In this document: in pieces, positions 21,014 to 45,194 of the stretch | Position numbering within the stretch: position 1 is the first letter of the stretch | Layout of the letters: each line of letters begins with the position of its first letter | Assembly: GCA_903871545.1 (NCBI GenBank) | Contig: CAIQHG010000048.1 | Location: forward strand, 1 to 64,000 | DNA: 64,000 bases | Source: an uncultured Burkholderiales bacterium | GTDB lineage: Bacteria; Pseudomonadota; Gammaproteobacteria; Burkholderiales; Burkholderiaceae_C | Direction: 5' to 3' | Made by a program: the position numbers and the translations under genes | The notes under the pieces: model-generated | Told to the model about the DNA's origin: nothing | Database searches by the model: none | The model's input: the letters and a program-made list of their open reading frames with translations, nothing else

Positions 21014-22069
21014 ATGATTGGACATGCACATCGCGCAAATATGATGAAAATTTGCCTCACCCCGGATAATCAGACTAAATTCAGGTTCAACAGTCTGTTT
21101 AATTTACTCAGCGCCGCGTTTATCAGTTTGTGCCTTTTGCATATGAATCAAAGTGACGCATTTGCTCAAAGCGCTTGGCCGAGTCGCAAACCCATCACGT
21201 TAGTTGCAGTGTTTCCAGCCGGGGGCAGCGTAGACCAGGTCGCAAGAATAATCTCCCAGCCCCTAAGCCAAGAGCTGGGTCAAACCGTAATCGTTGACAA
21301 CAAAGGCGGGGCCTCAGGCACGATTGGAACCTCCTTTGTCACTCAGTCCCCCCCAGATGGTTACACTTTTGCGGTGGTATTTGACACCCACGGAGTCAAT
21401 TCAAGTATTTATCCAAACTTATCCTATGACGCTCAAAAGGACTTAACACCGCTTATTCTTGTAGGCACATCTCCGATGGTGCTTGCGACCTACACGGGGT
21501 CTGAATACAAAACGTTTGCAGACGTGATGACTGCAGCAAAGGCTAATAAAAATGTCAGCTACGGTACGATAGGGAACGGGAGCCTGGGCCATTTGTCCAT
21601 GGTACTGCTTGCTAAAAACGCACACGTAGAGTGGACCCATATTCCGTATAAAGGGGGCGGTCCTTTGATGACGGATGCTGTTGCCAGTCACGTGCCTTTA
21701 TCAATGGCATCCGTATTTGTGACTAAACCCCACATTGATGCACAAAGACTTCGTCCATTGGCCGTTACTTCTAAGAAAAGAAGTCCCGATTTGCCTAGTG
21801 TCCCAACGATTGAAGAGCTTGGCTACCCGGGGTTTGAGGCACCTTCTTGGTGGGCACTGCTTGCTCCTGCAAAGACGCCCGCAGATGTGGTTAAGAAAAT
21901 GAACGAGGCACTCAATAAGGTGTTGAAGAATCCTGAGGTAGCTAAAAAACTGGATGCCCAAGGGATCGATATCATTGGTGGCACCCCCGAAAGCGCAAAA
22001 GCTTTCATTGACAATCAGATCACGACCTGGGCAAAAGTGGTCAAAGAAAATAACGTTCGCGTAGAGTGA
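21014..22069 (+). CDS. Bug family tripartite tricarboxylate receptor (orphan)
   Basis: Periplasmic binding protein of the TctC/Bug family that captures carboxylates or similar small ligands. The signal region (residues 25-50, ending AFAQ) is preceded by a 25-residue polar leader. Family motifs follow: WPSRKPITLVAVFPAGGSVDQVAR, VDNKGGASGTIGT, GNGSLGHLSM, HIPYKGGGPLMTDAV, and APSWWALLAPAKTPADVV. AAAGGA precedes the ATG at 21014 with normal spacing. No TctA/TctB membrane genes are adjacent, as is common for the expanded Bug set in Burkholderiales. The ligand is unknown. Confidence 0.88.
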   Translation: MIGHAHRANMMKICLTPDNQTKFRFNSLFNLLSAAFISLCLLHMNQSDAFAQSAWPSRKPITLVAVFPAGGSVDQVARIISQPLSQELGQTVIVDNKGGASGTIGTSFVTQSPPDGYTFAVVFDTHGVNSSIYPNLSYDAQKDLTPLILVGTSPMVLATYTGSEYKTFADVMTAAKANKNVSYGTIGNGSLGHLSMVLLAKNAHVEWTHIPYKGGGPLMTDAVASHVPLSMASVFVTKPHIDAQRLRPLAVTSKKRSPDLPSVPTIEELGYPGFEAPSWWALLAPAKTPADVVKKMNEALNKVLKNPEVAKKLDAQGIDIIGGTPESAKAFIDNQITTWAKVVKENNVRVE

Positions 22070-35422: not shown

Positions 35423-37036
35423 TCACTCGTTCTCGAGTGCTCGTAATTTAAAGCGTTGTATCTTACCTGTTGCCGTTTTGGGGAGTTCACTCACAAACTC
35501 AATGATTCGGGGATATTTGTACGGAGCAAGCTTGTCTTTGACAAAGGCTTTTAGCTCCTCCTCAGTCGCACTTGCCCCAGTTTTGAGAACGACAAATGCC
35601 TTAGTCTTTGTCAGACCCTCAATGTCTTTGGTGCCAATCACCGCCGCCTCCAGCACCGATGCATGCTGTATGAGTGTGGCCTCAACTTCAAAGGGACTCA
35701 CATAAATGCCACTGACTTTGAGCATGTCATCCGTTCTGCCCCCGTAGGTGTAGGTGCCGTCATCGTTTTTGATGTACTTGTCTCCGCTTTTGGTCCAGCC
35801 TCCTTGGAACGTTTCTCTACTTTTATCGCGGTTGCCCCAGTACAAAAGGGCACTGGAGGGGCCTTTGATGTACAGATCCCCTGGCTCTCCGATTGGCACA
35901 GGCAAACCGTCGTCCCCTCTTAGTTCTATCTCGTAACCCGGCACAGGCCATCCGGTCGTGCCGTAGCGAACCTCTTGGGGCCGGTTGGACAAAAAGATGT
36001 GTAGCATCTCTGTTGAGCCAATACCGTCTACGATATGAACCCCAAAATGCTTTGTAAACCGCTCTCCTATTTCCGCCGGTAAAGCCTCTCCCGCTGATGA
36101 AACCAAACGCAGAGCAACTTGCTGCTTGGACGGCAAATTGGGATGAGACAGCATGCCAGCAAATCCTGTGGGTGCTCCAAAAAATACGGTAGGCTTAATC
36201 CCCCCCGACCCTCCTGTCATCCTTTTGAAGGTTGCATCCGGTGTAGGACGCTCAGCCATTAGAACCGTACATGCCCCCACACGCAGGGGAAAGGTTAGCC
36301 CATTTCCAAGCCCATAGGCAAAGAAGAGCTTAGCGGCGGAGAAACAAACGTCCTCCTGAGCAATACCCAACACCCCAACGCCGTACAACTCGGTCGTCCA
36401 GTAAGGATTTGCGTGGGTGTGAACCGTGCCCTTAGGTCGTCCTGTAGAGCCAGAGGAGTAAAGCCAAAAGCCAGGGTCATCTGCCTTAGTTTTTGCGGCT
36501 TTTTGAAGAGGAGTTTGTTCGCTTAGGAAAAATTCAAACTCTATCTGCGCTGGGCTAAGCTGCGTAAGTGGGGTGCAGACTATGACTTTAACTACCTCGT
36601 TCTCAGATTGAGCCATAGCTGCAGCGAGGACAGGCACTAAAGCCCCGGATGCCAAAACCGCTTGGGCTCTGGAATGCTCAAGAATATAAGCATAATCCTC
36701 TGGCGTTAGCAAGGTGTTTACGGCAACAGGTACGAGCCCGGCGTACATCGCCCCTAAAAAACTGACTGGCCAATCGTTACAGTCATGCATCAACACCAAC
36801 ACTCGTTCCTCACGTCTAAGTCCCAGGGCGAGCAGGCCTGCAGCCGTTTTTCTAACGCGCTCATCCAGGCCTTTGAAGCTCAAAATTCCGTGGTCATCTA
36901 CAAACGCGGGTCGACTTGGGCGCTCAGTGTTGCATTGCAATAAAAACTCGGCAAAATTGAATGTCTCTGGCGGAGGTGAAACTTTGGGTGCTGACTGGGG
37001 TGTTATCTTGAGGGCTGTCATAAGTTGGGAATTCAT
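35423..37036 (-). CDS. Benzoate-CoA ligase
   Basis: ATP-dependent acyl-adenylate enzyme that activates benzoate to benzoyl-CoA, the first step of the box pathway. The AMP-binding motif SSGSTGRPKGTVHTHANPYW, the acyl-pocket region FFGAPTGFAG, DGIGSTEMLHIF, and the catalytic Lys in KTATGKIQRFKL are present. The residues around the ATP loop and GSTEMLHIFLSN match the benzoate-CoA ligase subgroup. Length (537) is standard. It diverges from boxR and heads the minus-strand transport operon. Confidence 0.93.
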   Translation of the reverse strand: MNSQLMTALKITPQSAPKVSPPPETFNFAEFLLQCNTERPSRPAFVDDHGILSFKGLDERVRKTAAGLLALGLRREERVLVLMHDCNDWPVSFLGAMYAGLVPVAVNTLLTPEDYAYILEHSRAQAVLASGALVPVLAAAMAQSENEVVKVIVCTPLTQLSPAQIEFEFFLSEQTPLQKAAKTKADDPGFWLYSSGSTGRPKGTVHTHANPYWTTELYGVGVLGIAQEDVCFSAAKLFFAYGLGNGLTFPLRVGACTVLMAERPTPDATFKRMTGGSGGIKPTVFFGAPTGFAGMLSHPNLPSKQQVALRLVSSAGEALPAEIGERFTKHFGVHIVDGIGSTEMLHIFLSNRPQEVRYGTTGWPVPGYEIELRGDDGLPVPIGEPGDLYIKGPSSALLYWGNRDKSRETFQGGWTKSGDKYIKNDDGTYTYGGRTDDMLKVSGIYVSPFEVEATLIQHASVLEAAVIGTKDIEGLTKTKAFVVLKTGASATEEELKAFVKDKLAPYKYPRIIEFVSELPKTATGKIQRFKLRALENE

Positions 37037-37259: not shown

Positions 37260-37274
37260 AGCAATATAGTGCAT
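37260..37274 (+). promoter_or_regulatory. Degenerate BoxR-type operator over the boxR -10
   Basis: AGCA-ATATAG-TGCA matches the TGCA-N6-TGCA pattern with one mismatch. TATAGT (37265-37270), a near-consensus -10, lies inside it, about 50 bp before the boxR start. It closely resembles the boxC site at 38391-38404, which suggests autoregulation. Confidence 0.55.
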
Positions 37275-37318
37275 ATCCTGGGGTAAATCCCTAACAAAGT
37301 AAATGGTCAAGATTGGAC

Positions 37319-38200
37319 ATGTCTGAAATTAATGAAGAAAAAAACCCATTTTTAAGTGCATTGGGCGAGCGCGTTCGCTCCTTAAGGGCCAGGCGCGGGC
37401 TGACTAGAAAAGCGCTGGCCCAATCTGCATCTATATCCGAGAGGCATTTGGCAAATTTGGAGTACGGGGAGGGCAACGCCTCCATACTTGTGCTTCACCA
37501 AGTGGCAGATGCTTTGCAGTGCTCATTGATCGAGTTGATAGGGGACGTGACTACCTCCAACCCAGAGTGGTTGATGTTGCGCGAGTTGCTGGGTGAGAGA
37601 AGTGAGGAGGAATTGCGCCGCGTTAGAGTTCACCTGACCGATCTTTACGGCCCTAATAAGGAGCAAGCACTCACCAACCGGATCGCTTTGATCGGGTTAA
37701 GGGGGGCGGGCAAATCAACCCTTGGTCACATGTTGTCCAAAGATTTGGGTTATGCCTTTGTCGAGCTGAGCCGCGAGATTGAAAAATTTGCGGGCTGTAG
37801 CATCTCTGAAATTCACAATCTTTACGGGCTCAGTGCTTACCGCCGCTATGAGCGAAGGGCGCTTGAGGAGGCCATTCAAATTCATCCCGAGGTCATTATT
37901 GCAACTCCAGGTGGGGTGGTCTCGGACTCGGGCACGCTCAACGCAGTGCTCTCTCACTGCTATACCGTGTGGCTACAAGCCAAACCAGAGGATCATTTGT
38001 CGCGGGTGGTGGCCCAAGGGGATATGAGGCCCATGGCGGGCTCCAAAGAAGCTCTAGATGATTTGAAGCTCATCTTAGAGGGCCGTGCCCCCTTTTACGC
38101 CAAAGCAAATATGAGCTTTGACACCAGCGCGCAGCCTTTAGAACAAAGTTTTATGGCCCTAAGGACCCAACTCAGGTCCGCCCTCAAGTTGCCCCTTTAG
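37319..38200 (+). CDS. boxR: BoxR/BzdR-type transcriptional regulator
   Basis: Regulator of benzoate catabolism that, in Azoarcus relatives, represses box genes and is released by benzoyl-CoA. An XRE helix-turn-helix domain (about residues 10-70, RARRGLTRKALAQSASISERHL) is joined by a linker to a shikimate-kinase-like domain with P-loop GLRGAGKST (126-134), which acts as the effector-binding half in this family. ATG 37319 is chosen; a TTG two codons earlier is in frame. It diverges from benzoate-CoA ligase and precedes boxC. A degenerate TGCA operator overlaps its likely -10. Confidence 0.93.
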   Translation: MSEINEEKNPFLSALGERVRSLRARRGLTRKALAQSASISERHLANLEYGEGNASILVLHQVADALQCSLIELIGDVTTSNPEWLMLRELLGERSEEELRRVRVHLTDLYGPNKEQALTNRIALIGLRGAGKSTLGHMLSKDLGYAFVELSREIEKFAGCSISEIHNLYGLSAYRRYERRALEEAIQIHPEVIIATPGGVVSDSGTLNAVLSHCYTVWLQAKPEDHLSRVVAQGDMRPMAGSKEALDDLKLILEGRAPFYAKANMSFDTSAQPLEQSFMALRTQLRSALKLPL

Positions 38201-38252
38201 ACCACCTGGCGTGAACCGAATGAACACGTCCAAACATTTGCCCGGTCTTTTA

Positions 38253-38306
38253 TGCAACTACATGCAACTACATGCAACTACATGCAACTAAGTGCAACTA
38301 CATGCA
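38253..38306 (+). promoter_or_regulatory. Array of six TGCA half-sites at exact 10-bp period
   Basis: TGCA starts at 38253, 38263, 38273, 38283, 38293 and 38303. The repeat unit is catgcaacta, with one unit changed to agtgcaacta. Every adjacent pair forms TGCA-N6-TGCA, the operator pattern attributed to BoxR. The array is about 85 bp upstream of the boxC core promoter and is a tandem duplication, so it is both a repeat and a candidate multi-site operator. Confidence 0.7.
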
Positions 38307-38370
38307 CTTTAAACGGTCCTGATCTGCTTACTTTATAAAAAGTAAGTGTTTTCCCTTTAATGAATAAAAG

Positions 38371-38404
38371 TGCATAATTTAAGTATTTAATGCAATATAA
38401 TGCA
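38371..38404 (+). promoter_or_regulatory. boxC promoter with embedded TGCA-N6-TGCA operator
   Basis: TGCA at 38391 and 38401 flank ATATAA; the spacer plus the next base gives a perfect -10 TATAAT at 38396-38401. A third TGCA at 38371 is 20 bp upstream. No good -35 is seen at the right distance. Binding here would block polymerase directly. The boxC ATG follows 78 bp downstream. Confidence 0.72.
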
Positions 38405-38481
38405 TTATTAAAAGAGTGTTTGTTAACCAAACTATATCAAACAGCTCTATATGCCTAAAGTGAAAAAAGGGAGACTGCTCA

Positions 38482-40149
38482 ATGAGTCAAAACGAACAAG
38501 TCAATTACGAAGTTGATCCGAACCACTACAAACACTGGTCAGTAAAGTACGAGGGTGAAACCGCCACATTGCAACTGAGCATCGACGAGGATGGGGGCAT
38601 TCGGCCTGGCTATAAGCTCAAACTGAACTCTTACGACTTGGGCGTGGACATTGAGTTAAACGACGCGTTGCAAAGAATTCGTTTCGAACATCCAGAAATA
38701 AAGTGTGTTGTTGTGACGAGCTTGCGCGACCGAATTTTTTGCTCTGGCGCAAACATTTTCATGCTCGGCTTGTCCACCCACGCTTGGAAAGTTAATTTCT
38801 GCAAATTTACGAACGAAACCCGCAATTCAATGGAGGACTCAAGTCGTCAAGGCGGACTTAAATTTTTGGCCGCTGTGAACGGTGCCTGCGCAGGCGGTGG
38901 ATATGAGTTGGCGCTTGCGTGTGATGAGATTTTGCTGGTGGATGATCGCTCCTCCAGCGTCTCTTTGCCAGAGGTGCCTTTACTCGGGGTGCTCCCCGGT
39001 ACAGGTGGTCTTACCCGCGTCACTGATAAACGAAGAGTTAGACACGACTTGGCCGATGTATTTTGCACAAGTGTGGAGGGCGTGCGGGGACAGCGTGCTG
39101 TAGAGTGGAGACTCGTGGACGAGGTGGCCAAGCCAGCTCAGTTCGCTGGCGCAGTTGCCGCGCGGGTCAAAAACCTAGCGTCCAAAAGCTCGCGTCCTGG
39201 CCTAGCGGCTTTAGGGCAAGGCGTACTGTTTAGCCCACTGAATAAAAAAACAACTCAGGACTCTTTTCACTACGAGTACGTGCAGGTTGACATTGACAGA
39301 AGTAAACGCACCGCATCCCTTAAGGTAAGTGCCCCTAAAGTTGCGGTCCCCAAAGATTTGGACTCCATTCACGCCGAGGGTGCAAATTGGTACCCGCTTC
39401 AAATGGCGCGTGAATTAGACGATGCCATACTTGGTTTACGGACCAACGAATTAGATATCGGTACTTGGATCCTCAGCGCAAAGGGCGACCCGTCTTTGGC
39501 GCTTGAGTCAGACGCCGTCTTAAAAGAGCACAGCTCAAATTGGTTGGTGCAAGAAACACTCGGCTATTTAAGACGCACGTTGGCCCGGATTGATGTGTCC
39601 TCACGCTCCATTTTTGCCTTGATAGATGAGGACTCTTGTTTTGTAGGCACCTTAGCTGAGTTGGCTTTTGCGGCGGACCGCACCTACATGCTCTCCTTGC
39701 CAGATACTCCTGAGAGTGGCCCGCATTTGGTACTCAGTGAGCTAAATTTTGGGTACTACCCAATGGTCAATCATCAGTCCCGTTTGCAGCGCCGTTTTTA
39801 TGAAGAGGTAGAGCCGCTTGAGAAAATAAGAGCCGTAATCGGTAAGCCCTTAGACGGCGAAACGGCTTTGGCGCTGGGGTTGGTCACAGCCGCACCCGAT
39901 GATATTGATTGGAGCGATGAAATCCGTACCGCTTTGGAGCAAAGAGCTGCAATGTCCCCCGACAGTTTGACTGGGCTAGAGGCTAATTTACGGTTCTCTC
40001 AAAAGGAATCCATGGAGACACGGATTTTTGGACGCCTGTCCGCTTGGCAAAACTGGATCTTCAACCGTCCCAATGCGGTGGGGGAAAAAGGCGCTTTGAA
40101 AGTCTACGGAAAAGGCGAGAAAGCAGCCTTTGATCTAAACCGCGTTTAA
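38482..40149 (+). CDS. boxC: Benzoyl-CoA-dihydrodiol lyase BoxC
   Basis: Enoyl-CoA hydratase-superfamily enzyme that opens the 2,3-epoxybenzoyl-CoA ring with water to 3,4-dehydroadipyl-CoA semialdehyde and formate. The crotonase core is in the first half: CSGANIFMLG, NGACAGGGYELALACDE (oxyanion region) and LPEVPLLGVLPGTGGLTR. A second degenerate crotonase-like half follows from about residue 280. At 555 residues it has the normal BoxC length. GGGAG precedes the ATG. It is first in the boxCBA operon, after the TGCA-rich promoter. Confidence 0.95.
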   Translation: MSQNEQVNYEVDPNHYKHWSVKYEGETATLQLSIDEDGGIRPGYKLKLNSYDLGVDIELNDALQRIRFEHPEIKCVVVTSLRDRIFCSGANIFMLGLSTHAWKVNFCKFTNETRNSMEDSSRQGGLKFLAAVNGACAGGGYELALACDEILLVDDRSSSVSLPEVPLLGVLPGTGGLTRVTDKRRVRHDLADVFCTSVEGVRGQRAVEWRLVDEVAKPAQFAGAVAARVKNLASKSSRPGLAALGQGVLFSPLNKKTTQDSFHYEYVQVDIDRSKRTASLKVSAPKVAVPKDLDSIHAEGANWYPLQMARELDDAILGLRTNELDIGTWILSAKGDPSLALESDAVLKEHSSNWLVQETLGYLRRTLARIDVSSRSIFALIDEDSCFVGTLAELAFAADRTYMLSLPDTPESGPHLVLSELNFGYYPMVNHQSRLQRRFYEEVEPLEKIRAVIGKPLDGETALALGLVTAAPDDIDWSDEIRTALEQRAAMSPDSLTGLEANLRFSQKESMETRIFGRLSAWQNWIFNRPNAVGEKGALKVYGKGEKAAFDLNRV

Positions 40150-42963: not shown

Positions 42964-42990
42964 AATCAATCAATCAATCAATCATCAATT
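42964..42990. repeat. (AATC)5 microsatellite and hairpin between boxA and chrA
   Basis: Five exact AATC units at 42964-42983 end next to the chrA stop. CAATCA at the end of the array can pair with TGATTG at about 42990-42995. It lies between two convergent gene ends, so it may act in transcript termination, but there is no strong T-tract. Confidence 0.7.
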
Positions 42991-44199
42991 GATTGCCTGA
43001 CTAATCCAATACAAAGTACTTGTAGCTAATACTACAAACCAAGGCGGTAACTTCAAATACATTAAAGAGATGAAGGCTGCCAAGCCAAAGCAAAAGTCAA
43101 GGGGAGTGCCTATCGCACTGATCCATATGGGTTTATACAAAGCGGCCAAAAGAATACCTACTACACCGCAATTGACCCCCATTAAAGCTGATTTTGCTCT
43201 AGCGTTTTGTTTGAGATCACCCCAAAATGGAAGCGTCCCCACAACCAACAAAAAGGACGGTAAAAATATGGCGATCAAGCAAAGTAGCCCCCCCCAAACA
43301 CTGTTGACACCCTCACTCGCAGATGATCCTATGTACGCTGCAAAAGTAAACAAAGGCCCTGGCATAGCCTGGGTCAAGCCGTAACCCGTCAAAAAGGTGT
43401 CGCCGGTAACCCATCCTTTGGGGATTACCTCACTTTGCAAAAGGGGCAATACCACATGCCCTCCGCCAAACACCAGGGATCCTGCCCTATAAAAAGTACT
43501 TAGCATCCCTAGCCACTGATTGGGGTATAGCTCTTGTAAAAGGGGAAGCCCGAATAAAAGAGTAAAAAATAGAATTAACGAGAAAAAAGCAATTTTTTTA
43601 TCTGAATAGACCAAATACAAATCGTCCTGAATAGTTTGAGTTGTCCTTAAAAAAATGGACCCCACAATTGCTGATGTGAAAATAACGGCAAGCGTGGACC
43701 AAATCAAGGATTGAAATAACAATACGATGCACGCACTAATAGACATCAAACAAATTTTAAAATTATCAGTGCAAATACTTTTTGCCATTGCCCATACCGC
43801 CTGGGATACAACTGCTACAACCACGATCTTAAGACCGTGGATTATCCCCAAAGGTATCAAGTGAGTATTTCCTGATACTAATCTAGATAGGAACATCAAA
43901 AATAATGCAGATGGCAAAGTAAATCCTAACCAAGCCGCTAATAAGCCAAGATATTTTTTTTGAAAAAATCCCAAAACCATACCCACCTGACTGCTTGTTG
44001 GACCAGGCAAAAATTGACATAAAGCGACAATCTCGACGTAAGTATGCTCATCTAGCCATTTGCGTTTTGCGACAAACTCCTCCCTAAAGTATCCAAGGTG
44101 GGCCACAGGGCCGCCAAAAGAGGTGAGTCCAAGTCGTAAAAAGATAATAAGAATTGACCAAAAACTTCTTTGTTTGTTGATTGGTATATTTACGTGCAT
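42985..44199 (-). CDS. chrA: Chromate transporter (ChrA family)
   Basis: CHR-superfamily membrane protein, 404 residues, with two homologous halves (long-chain form). The first half has FLRLGLTSFGGPVAHLGYFREEFV and CQFLPGPTSSQVGMVLGF; the second has FYRAGSLVFGGGHVVLPLLQSEV and GYGLTQAMPGPLFTFAAYIG. Both conserved Pro-Gly-Pro motifs are present. Family members export chromate, though some have other anions. No chrB regulator is adjacent. It is convergent with boxA and marks the start of a metal/metalloid-resistance stretch. Confidence 0.9.
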   Translation of the reverse strand: MHVNIPINKQRSFWSILIIFLRLGLTSFGGPVAHLGYFREEFVAKRKWLDEHTYVEIVALCQFLPGPTSSQVGMVLGFFQKKYLGLLAAWLGFTLPSALFLMFLSRLVSGNTHLIPLGIIHGLKIVVVAVVSQAVWAMAKSICTDNFKICLMSISACIVLLFQSLIWSTLAVIFTSAIVGSIFLRTTQTIQDDLYLVYSDKKIAFFSLILFFTLLFGLPLLQELYPNQWLGMLSTFYRAGSLVFGGGHVVLPLLQSEVIPKGWVTGDTFLTGYGLTQAMPGPLFTFAAYIGSSASEGVNSVWGGLLCLIAIFLPSFLLVVGTLPFWGDLKQNARAKSALMGVNCGVVGILLAALYKPIWISAIGTPLDFCFGLAAFISLMYLKLPPWFVVLATSTLYWISQAIN

Positions 44200-44378: not shown

Positions 44379-45194
44379 TTAAAGAGATTTTTGATTAACT
44401 CTTTTCATTAACTCCTCCGCGCTTTCCTTTCTTTCGCTGTATCTATCAGTCAAATAAGGTGAGGCCGTTCGAGTCAATAAAGTGAATTTAACGAGTTCTT
44501 CCATCACGTCGACTACCCGGTCATAAGACCCTGAGGGCTTCATCCGGTTGTCATCGTCAAACTCAAGAAATGCTTTTGCCACAGATGACTGATTTGGAAT
44601 CGTAATCATTCTCATCCATCTTCCTAAAATCCTCATTTGGTTAACCGCGTTAAAGGATTGAGACCCGCCGCTTACCTGCATCAAGGCAAGCGTCTTGCCC
44701 TGGGTAGGTCTTACAGCTCCAATACTTAGGGGAATCCAATCTATTTGACTCTTCATCAGCCCAGTCATCGCCCCGTGACGCTCAGGCGAAGACCATACCA
44801 GGCCCTCAGCCCACTGCACTAATTCTCTCAGCTCAACCACCTTAGGGTGGGTATCAGGTGCGGCATCAACTTGGGGAAGTCCAAGGGGATTGAAAAACTT
44901 AGTTTCACATCCCATAGCCTTCAAAATTCGTTGCGCCTCCTCAGCTAAAAGCCGGCTAAACGATTTTTCTCTAAGAGAGCCGTAAAGAAGAAGAATTTTA
45001 GGAGCGTGCTTAAAGAGAGAAGTGTCCTGTAAGTAGTCTAGCCCTGGTTTTTTGAAAAACTTGGGATCAATATTGGGTAATTCGTTCATAGGAGAGGAAG
45101 GGGTGGGAGTGAGAGTGAGAGTGGGGTGGGGTGGGGGCTTGGGCCTGAGAGAGGCAACGGGCGAGCCAGCCTGAATAAAGTGTTTGCTTTTCAA
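44379..45194 (-). CDS. arsH: Organoarsenical oxidase/NADPH-FMN reductase ArsH
   Basis: Flavoprotein of the ArsH family that oxidises trivalent organoarsenicals. Recognised by [41 protein letters not shown] and [23 protein letters not shown] in successive blocks (residues about 66-190). The frame opens with TTG at 45194, but residues 1-35 are Pro/Thr/Ser-rich low complexity; ATG 45089 gives the usual ArsH N-terminus ([12 protein letters not shown]). Neither start has a clear Shine-Dalgarno. It diverges from arsR, sharing the regulatory gap. Confidence 0.92.
45123..45143 (+). other. G-quadruplex-type motif between arsH and arsR
   Basis: Four G-runs (45123-45126, 45128-45131, 45133-45137, 45141-45143) with 1-, 1- and 3-nt loops fit the G4 pattern. 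On the complementary strand the tract lies in the 5' part or leader of arsH. It arises from a G/T/A-rich microsatellite-like stretch that begins near 45092. Confidence 0.6.

What the first reader, a model, noticed from the sequence alone, without database searches (positions are those of the whole stretch)
38253..38404. Phased array of nine TGCA half-sites upstream of boxC, one pair embedded in a perfect -10
TGCA occurs at 38253, 38263, 38273, 38283, 38293 and 38303 (exact 10-bp period) and again at 38371, 38391 and 38401. Any adjacent pair in the array, and the 38391/38401 pair, gives TGCA-N6-TGCA, the pattern I recall for the BoxR operator. The promoter-proximal pair encloses TATAAT. Six half-sites on one face of the helix, made by duplication of a 10-bp unit, would allow cooperative loading of BoxR or looping to the core promoter. 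I know of no described box promoter with such an expanded operator; it may be a titratable, copy-number-tunable switch for benzoate degradation.
Basis: partly seen in the sequence, partly recalled or inferred. Interest (0 to 1): 0.82.

Follow-up and report, generated by a model that had tools for sequence, protein, structure and literature searches.

The report
Benzoate repressor operator beside 10-bp minisatellite
The promoter of a benzoate-degradation operon carries an ordinary binding site for its known repressor, plus a run of 10-letter repeats that shares four letters with that site but otherwise does not look like it, so it is probably a chance repeat or at most a weak extra landing strip.

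Summary
(1) 38361-38404 is a standard BoxR-type box promoter: TGCAATATAATGCA over the -10 (38391-38404) and a degenerate second operator, TGAATAAAAGTGCA (38361-38374), 30 bp upstream. Relatives share this layout; the -10 pair scores above all 123 operator sites taken from relatives' boxC promoters. (2) 38252-38306 is a private 10-bp tandem repeat (ATGCAACTAC x5.5) in the boxR-boxC gap. No chain above 3 exists in 112 other distinct boxC upstreams, and its two-unit sequence is absent from the 298 other family genomes sampled. Its TGCA-N6-TGCA units have the wrong spacer, scoring in the bottom 0-3% of operators. Chains of four or more TGCA at 10 bp exist in 16 of 477 genomes searched; only this one lies by box genes. 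Against this, an array landing in a boxC promoter by chance is improbable (about 0.001-0.002 expected before look-elsewhere), and it covers the zone of the OR3 operator of the related BzdR promoter. A weak accessory BoxR tract stays open (about 0.35); the 'tunable switch' has no evidence.

The parts
37313..38200 (+). boxR: XRE-type HTH + shikimate-kinase-like repressor of the box genes (start codon approximate)
   Evidence: NCBIfam NF006015 438.7 bits, cut-off 204; HTH segment agrees with the consensus of 91 distinct relatives over SERHLANLEYG.GNAS
38252..38306 (+). 10-bp tandem array, unit ATGCAACTAC x5.5, six TGCA; private minisatellite, at most a weak accessory BoxR tract
   Evidence: TRF; longest chain elsewhere 3 in 112 other distinct boxC upstreams; two-unit sequence in no other of 299 family genomes; poor operator score
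38327..38346 (+). A+T-rich dyad cttactttataaaaagtaag, possible boxR 3' end; does not meet the terminator scan's rule
   Evidence: read; paired in the predicted fold; not reported as terminator
38361..38374 (+). degenerate second operator TGAATAAAAGTGCA (one half-site lost; TGCATAAAAATGCA in several relatives), 30 bp upstream of the -10 operator
   Evidence: alignment of 13 promoters; in relatives 25 of 40 further pairs start 31-34 bp upstream of the proximal one
38391..38404 (+). promoter-proximal BoxR-type operator TGCAATATAATGCA
   Evidence: score 8.66, above all 123 operator sites of relatives; the only TGCA-W6-TGCA in the 3.56-Mb genome assembly
38396..38401 (+). TATAAT, putative -10 of the boxC promoter, overlapped by the operator
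   Evidence: the promoter scan found no sigma-70 pair on this strand
38482..40149 (+). boxC, 2,3-epoxybenzoyl-CoA dihydrolase, first gene downstream; boxB 40198 and boxA 41638 follow
   Evidence: TIGR03222 923 bits, TIGR03225 884.9, TIGR03224 711.6, all over cut-off
37260..37273 (+). AGCAATATAGTGCA, one-mismatch BoxR-like site upstream of boxR
   Evidence: read; its TGCA is the only one in the 330 bp upstream of boxR

Best explanation
Two unrelated layers overlap. The boxC promoter is a standard benzoyl-CoA-responsive BoxR promoter: a BoxR dimer on TGCAATATAATGCA covers the -10 and blocks RNA polymerase; a weakened second operator three turns upstream helps; benzoyl-CoA releases the repressor (inferred from the known BzdR/BoxR system, not shown here). 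The six-unit TGCA array 85-139 bp upstream of the -10 operator is a private, probably recent 10-bp minisatellite in the 3' flank of boxR. Its TGCA is most likely incidental and it has little or no effect on BoxR control.
For: Proximal operator: top score against 123 sites of relatives, shared by the aligned relatives, sole TGCA-W6-TGCA in the assembly. Array: unit scores -3.53 (three), -0.61 and -5.62, at 0-3% of the leave-one-out operator scores; the 7 chance TGCA-N6-TGCA sites of the 362-kb sample span -8.93 to -1.65, so four units fall inside that range and the -0.61 unit just above it. Spacer position 3 is A in 109 of 123 operators but T in the array. Longest 10-bp TGCA chain is at most 3 in 112 other distinct boxC upstreams and at most 2 in the 10 sequences dropped from that count. 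In the genus search only 38343-38416 of the gap aligns, in 6 of the 83 other genomes, never the array. Chains of at least 4 TGCA at 10 bp: 4 of 84 genus genomes and 13 of 399 family genomes, together 16 of 477 (6 genomes in both); of the loci fetched for all 16, only this genome's encode boxR, boxC or bclA next to the array. The other three genus genomes (4, 5 and 6 half-sites) have no BoxC and no BoxR over cut-off. Period 10 is the commonest period among non-coding arrays of at least 2.5 copies in the sample, 5 of 25.
Against: Location: of the 4 genus arrays, 0.0009-0.0023 would be expected to fall in one of 48 boxC promoters by chance (uniform placement in non-coding DNA assumed, before look-elsewhere). 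Period 10 equals the half-site spacing of the operator. The array spans about -155 to -102 of the inferred start, overlapping where OR3 (-146 to -126) lies in the Azoarcus PN promoter (PMC6678401). In some nearest relatives and here the second operator has lost a half-site, so compensation is conceivable. The scoring matrix comes from boxC-promoter sites whose spacers may also be shaped by the promoter. Of the 16 genomes, three family ones carry 5-bp rather than 10-bp repeats and three are not clean tandem repeats, so they are loose comparisons. Two of the three BoxR-less genus genomes are incomplete (87% and 68%).
Confidence: 0.55

Rival explanations
1. The array is an accessory BoxR tract, an OR2/OR3 equivalent: up to three non-overlapping dimers bind weakly and cooperatively and contact dimers at the -10 operator through a DNA loop, tuning repression or release. 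With the proximal pair this makes four dimers, as reported for BzdR on PN.
For: TGCA-N6-TGCA is among the described BzdR/BoxR patterns and sites are almost always multiple (PMC6449761); OR2 and OR3 are needed for de-repression and four dimers form a loop (PMC6678401); position overlaps the OR3 zone; chance placement improbable; recognition-helix region of BoxR conserved.
Against: Spacer disfavoured; no chain of 4 or more in 112 other distinct boxC upstreams; of the 84 of these with a pair within 160 bp, only 2 have a further full pair more than 60 bp upstream of it; comparable arrays in genomes without BoxR over cut-off; the 68-bp step to the next half-site is about 6.5 turns, opposite face.
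Confidence: 0.35
2. The array serves something else: part of the boxR 3' UTR or a site for another regulator or DNA-bending protein.
For: It lies between the boxR stop and an A+T-rich dyad; the predicted RNA fold of 38201-38370 is slightly more stable than shuffles (z -1.94, 7 of 200 as good).
Against: Fold signal is marginal; the array does not align in the genus. No Rfam search was made.
Confidence: 0.1

Closest known systems
BoxR operators of betaproteobacterial box divergons (Suvorova and Gelfand 2019, PMC6449761; passages read)
   Same: boxR next to boxCBA; main motif with 6 nt between TGCA, ATGCACTATAGTGCAT; sites almost always multiple, several turns apart. The -10 pair fits.
   Different: The upstream array has six half-sites in one uninterrupted 10-bp tandem repeat with a non-consensus spacer.
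BzdR-controlled PN promoter of Azoarcus sp. CIB, OR1-OR3 (PMC6678401; passages read)
   Same: Core operator at the promoter plus upstream TGCA-N6-TGCA operators at -83 to -63 and -146 to -126; start site 75 nt before the ATG (here about 74, inferred).
   Different: PN upstream operators are discrete single pairs reported in all Azoarcus PN promoters compared there; here a private tandem repeat.
Phase-variable promoter repeats, e.g. nadA of Neisseria meningitidis with NadR operators flanking the repeat tract (PMC2791445; abstract and section list seen)
   Same: Tandem repeat upstream of a promoter under a ligand-responsive repressor that may loop.
   Different: Repeat-number variation is reported there; here it could not be tested, and the unit itself would hold the half-site.

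Membership tests
BoxR/BzdR operator (pair 38391/38401) | TGCA-N6-TGCA upstream of a box or bzd gene next to boxR/bzdR | tested here: met
BoxR/BzdR operator (pair 38391/38401) | spacer and flank like those of relatives' operators | tested here: met
   score 8.66, above all 123 leave-one-out scores
BoxR/BzdR operator (pair 38391/38401) | binding by the repressor, release by benzoyl-CoA | not testable with these tools
   needs footprint or EMSA
BoxR/BzdR operator (array 38252-38306) | TGCA-N6-TGCA half-site spacing | tested here: met
BoxR/BzdR operator (array 38252-38306) | spacer and flank like those of relatives' operators | tested here: not met
   -3.53, -3.53, -3.53, -0.61, -5.62; 0-3% of 123 operator scores
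BoxR/BzdR operator (array 38252-38306) | conservation at the same place in related box promoters | tested here: not met
   0 of 112 other distinct boxC upstreams have a chain of 4 or more; array not aligned in 83 other genus genomes
Phase-variable promoter repeat | unit number differs between strains and changes expression | not tested
   no second strain of the species was found to compare; metagenome scans were capped at 0

The most novel reading that the evidence does not exclude
In this species an expandable decamer tract next to a decayed second operator has been recruited as a multivalent BoxR landing strip, so that repeat number sets the threshold or steepness of benzoyl-CoA induction: operator birth by minisatellite expansion.
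Probability: 0.2. Interest if true: 0.5.

Novelty: new member of a known kind. Interest (0 to 1): 0.22.

Why it matters
The proximal operator extends the published box-promoter architecture to another Burkholderiales lineage. If the array did bind BoxR it would be a natural example of a metabolic operator grown by tandem duplication, and of repeat number tuning a catabolic switch. As it stands it is a useful warning: TGCA chains at near-helical spacing also arise where no BoxR is found.

Tried and rejected
Array as part of a repeat family shared between genomes: the exact 20-base pattern of two units occurs in 1 of 299 family genomes, this one. Array as a duplicate of an ancestral operator at that place: the upstreams printed show no such pair there, and that part of the gap does not align; two other promoters do have a far pair, L107 at 61 bp and L051 at 171 bp above the proximal one. 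A BoxR-related second locus in this genome: the only other triple TGCA decamer (contig C37:21619) lies before a gene for a small outer-membrane-like protein followed by lipoprotein-like genes, judged by reading the ORFs and not by a family search. RNA structure or terminator: marginal or none. Decamer extension of operators as a general trend: chains of 3 in 3 of 112 promoters, about what local TGCA density would give by my own rough estimate, not computed in a call. Two literature searches returned 0 papers: tandem-repeat operators with five terms and boxR with operator terms. A search on hmw1A promoter repeats gave 3 listings that I did not open. Valderrama 2012, recalled as the first BoxR paper, is not held, so its sites are known here only through PMC6449761. 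My look-elsewhere factor of about 10-20 on the placement estimate is a judgement, not a computation.

Rows dropped: 131 sequences were given to (80, 30, 20, and the window); 121 had a recognised boxC start with at least 100 bases upstream, 113 were distinct in the last 150 bases, the window among them; 112 of the 113 hold the full 450 bases. The 10 dropped (L038, L067, L130, L131, L133, L134, L135, L140, L143, L144) have no chain above 2 in the whole stretch held, but L038 and L067 hold almost nothing upstream of boxC (71 and 2 bases). L143 (G020) shows no boxR in the stretch fetched upstream of boxC. and one search drew evenly from a larger family; genomes not drawn were not seen.

Full report
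The observation. All nine TGCA words are at the stated positions. TRF reports 38252-38306 as a 10-bp repeat, ATGCAACTAC, 5.5 copies. TGCA-N6-TGCA is over-represented in the window (7 against a shuffled mean of 1.90), but five of the seven are a single tandem event. TATAAT is at 38396-38401 and overlaps the second TGCA of the promoter pair by one base.

The surroundings. NCBIfam gives a benzoate-CoA ligase family protein at 35423-37036 (-), the BzdR/BoxR-type regulator (NF006015, 438.7 bits) at 37313-38200, then BoxC, BoxB and BoxA from 38482 onward, all over cut-off. The boxR-boxC gap is 281 bp, longer than in most relatives measured by the same script (longer ones are L033, L034, L039, L043 and L055). 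The array lies in its upstream half, between the boxR stop and an A+T-rich dyad (38327-38346).

What is conserved. Many relatives' promoters show two BoxR-type operators: TGCA-ATATRA-TGCA or similar over the -10 and TGCA-TAAAAA-TGCA or similar upstream; of 40 further pairs found upstream of a proximal one, 25 start 31-34 bp above it. Not every promoter has an exact pair: 28 of 112 have none in the last 200 bp. In the window the proximal one is intact and scores 8.66, higher than each of 123 sites from relatives scored leave-one-out; it is the only TGCA-W6-TGCA in the 3.56-Mb assembly. The upstream one is degenerate (TGAATAAAAGTGCA, 38361-38374), as in some of the nearest relatives. Half-sites 38371, 38391 and 38401 thus belong to the standard pair of operators.

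What the array is. In the genus search it aligns to nothing; matches in 6 of the 83 other genomes cover only 38343-38416. Its exact two-unit sequence is found in 1 of 299 family genomes, this one. Of 113 distinct boxC upstreams the longest chain of TGCA at exact 10-bp spacing is 1 in 28, 2 in 81, 3 in 3, and 6 in the window; the ten sequences dropped from that count reach at most 2. Its units fail a test that most boxC-promoter operators pass: scores are -3.53 (three units), -0.61 and -5.62, at 0-3% of the 123 operator scores; seven chance TGCA-N6-TGCA sites in a 362-kb sample of the genome span -8.93 to -1.65, so four units fall inside that range and one just above it. A second set, 35 TGCA-N6-TGCA sites elsewhere in the 80 named loci, has a median of 4.30; 80% of them score at or above -3.53 and 69% at or above -0.61. 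Some of those lie upstream of boxR.

Control for the array. Short non-coding tandem repeats are common in this genome: 25 of at least 2.5 copies in 362 kb, period 10 being the commonest (5 of 25; coding judged by ORFs of 100 aa or more, not by a gene caller). Across the genus, chains of four or more TGCA at 10 bp occur in 4 of 84 genomes: this one, and G060 (6 half-sites), G012 (5) and G005 (4). Those three have no BoxC over cut-off and no BoxR over cut-off; their matches to the BoxR family are weak, the best ones to its shikimate-kinase half. Completeness is 97, 68 and 87 per cent, so absence is firm only for G060. Across the family 13 of 399 genomes have such chains; three of these are 5-bp repeats and three are not clean tandem repeats. 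The loci fetched for all 16 genomes, reaching up to about 1.5 kb on each side (less at contig ends), encode no boxR, boxC, boxB or bclA except the window's own (a 25% match of bclA in L090 belongs to another, triple-TGCA locus).

What speaks the other way. If the four genus arrays were placed at random in non-coding DNA, only 0.0009-0.0023 would be expected in one of 48 boxC promoters. The array covers about -155 to -102 relative to an inferred start near 38408. In the Azoarcus PN promoter BzdR occupies OR1 over the promoter, OR2 at -83 to -63 and OR3 at -146 to -126, OR2 and OR3 both being TGCA(N6)TGCA; four dimers form a loop, and OR2 and OR3 are needed for release by benzoyl-CoA (PMC6678401, passages read). 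Three non-overlapping dimers on the array plus one on the -10 pair would also be four. I therefore leave accessory binding at 0.35.

Literature. PMC6449761 (passages read) gives the main BoxR/BzdR motif as ATGCACTATAGTGCAT with 6 nt between TGCA, sites almost always multiple and often several turns apart, and cites spacings of 1, 6 or 15 nt for the experimental work. So multiple TGCA operators at a box promoter are known; an uninterrupted decamer array was not mentioned in the passages I read. I searched with BoxR/benzoyl-CoA/TGCA, BzdR/benzoyl-CoA/operator, boxR/box pathway/benzoate/operator and BoxR/benzoate/repressor, and saw only listings of the other papers; no claim is made that such an array is undescribed.

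Verdict. The operator at the -10 is, by sequence, an ordinary member of a known kind. The array is a real, private minisatellite whose resemblance to the operator is limited to TGCA and a 10-bp period; the expanded, copy-number-tunable operator is possible but unsupported.

Noticed in passing
window 38350-38356 and relatives: A WWWCCCT / AGGGWWW-type element lies just upstream of the second operator in a number of box promoters: 32 of 113 distinct boxC upstreams (200 bp) against 157 of 1794 200-bp tiles of this genome. It occurs in both orientations at a similar place; possible activator site.
   Followed up: partly
L142 / L001, upstream of boxC: The nearest relative found (boxC 84% identical) has lost a half-site in both standard operators (TGAAATATAATGCA and TGAATAAAAGTGCA), suggesting operator turnover in this subclade.
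   Followed up: partly
L158 1570-1642 (contig C37 about 21570-21642): Another decayed 10-bp array (GCATTCATAT) in the same genome, before a small outer-membrane-like gene followed by lipoprotein-like genes.
   Followed up: partly
L172 about 1501-1554 (G060 contig C83:14821-14874): Six TGCA at exact 10-bp spacing (TGCATATCTC unit) in a stretch without a listed ORF, upstream of an ORF that reads like an ABC transporter ATPase, in a genome without BoxR over cut-off.
   Followed up: partly
window 42985-44199 (-) and 44379-45194 (-): Chromate-efflux-type and arsH genes sit directly downstream of the box operon.
   Followed up: no
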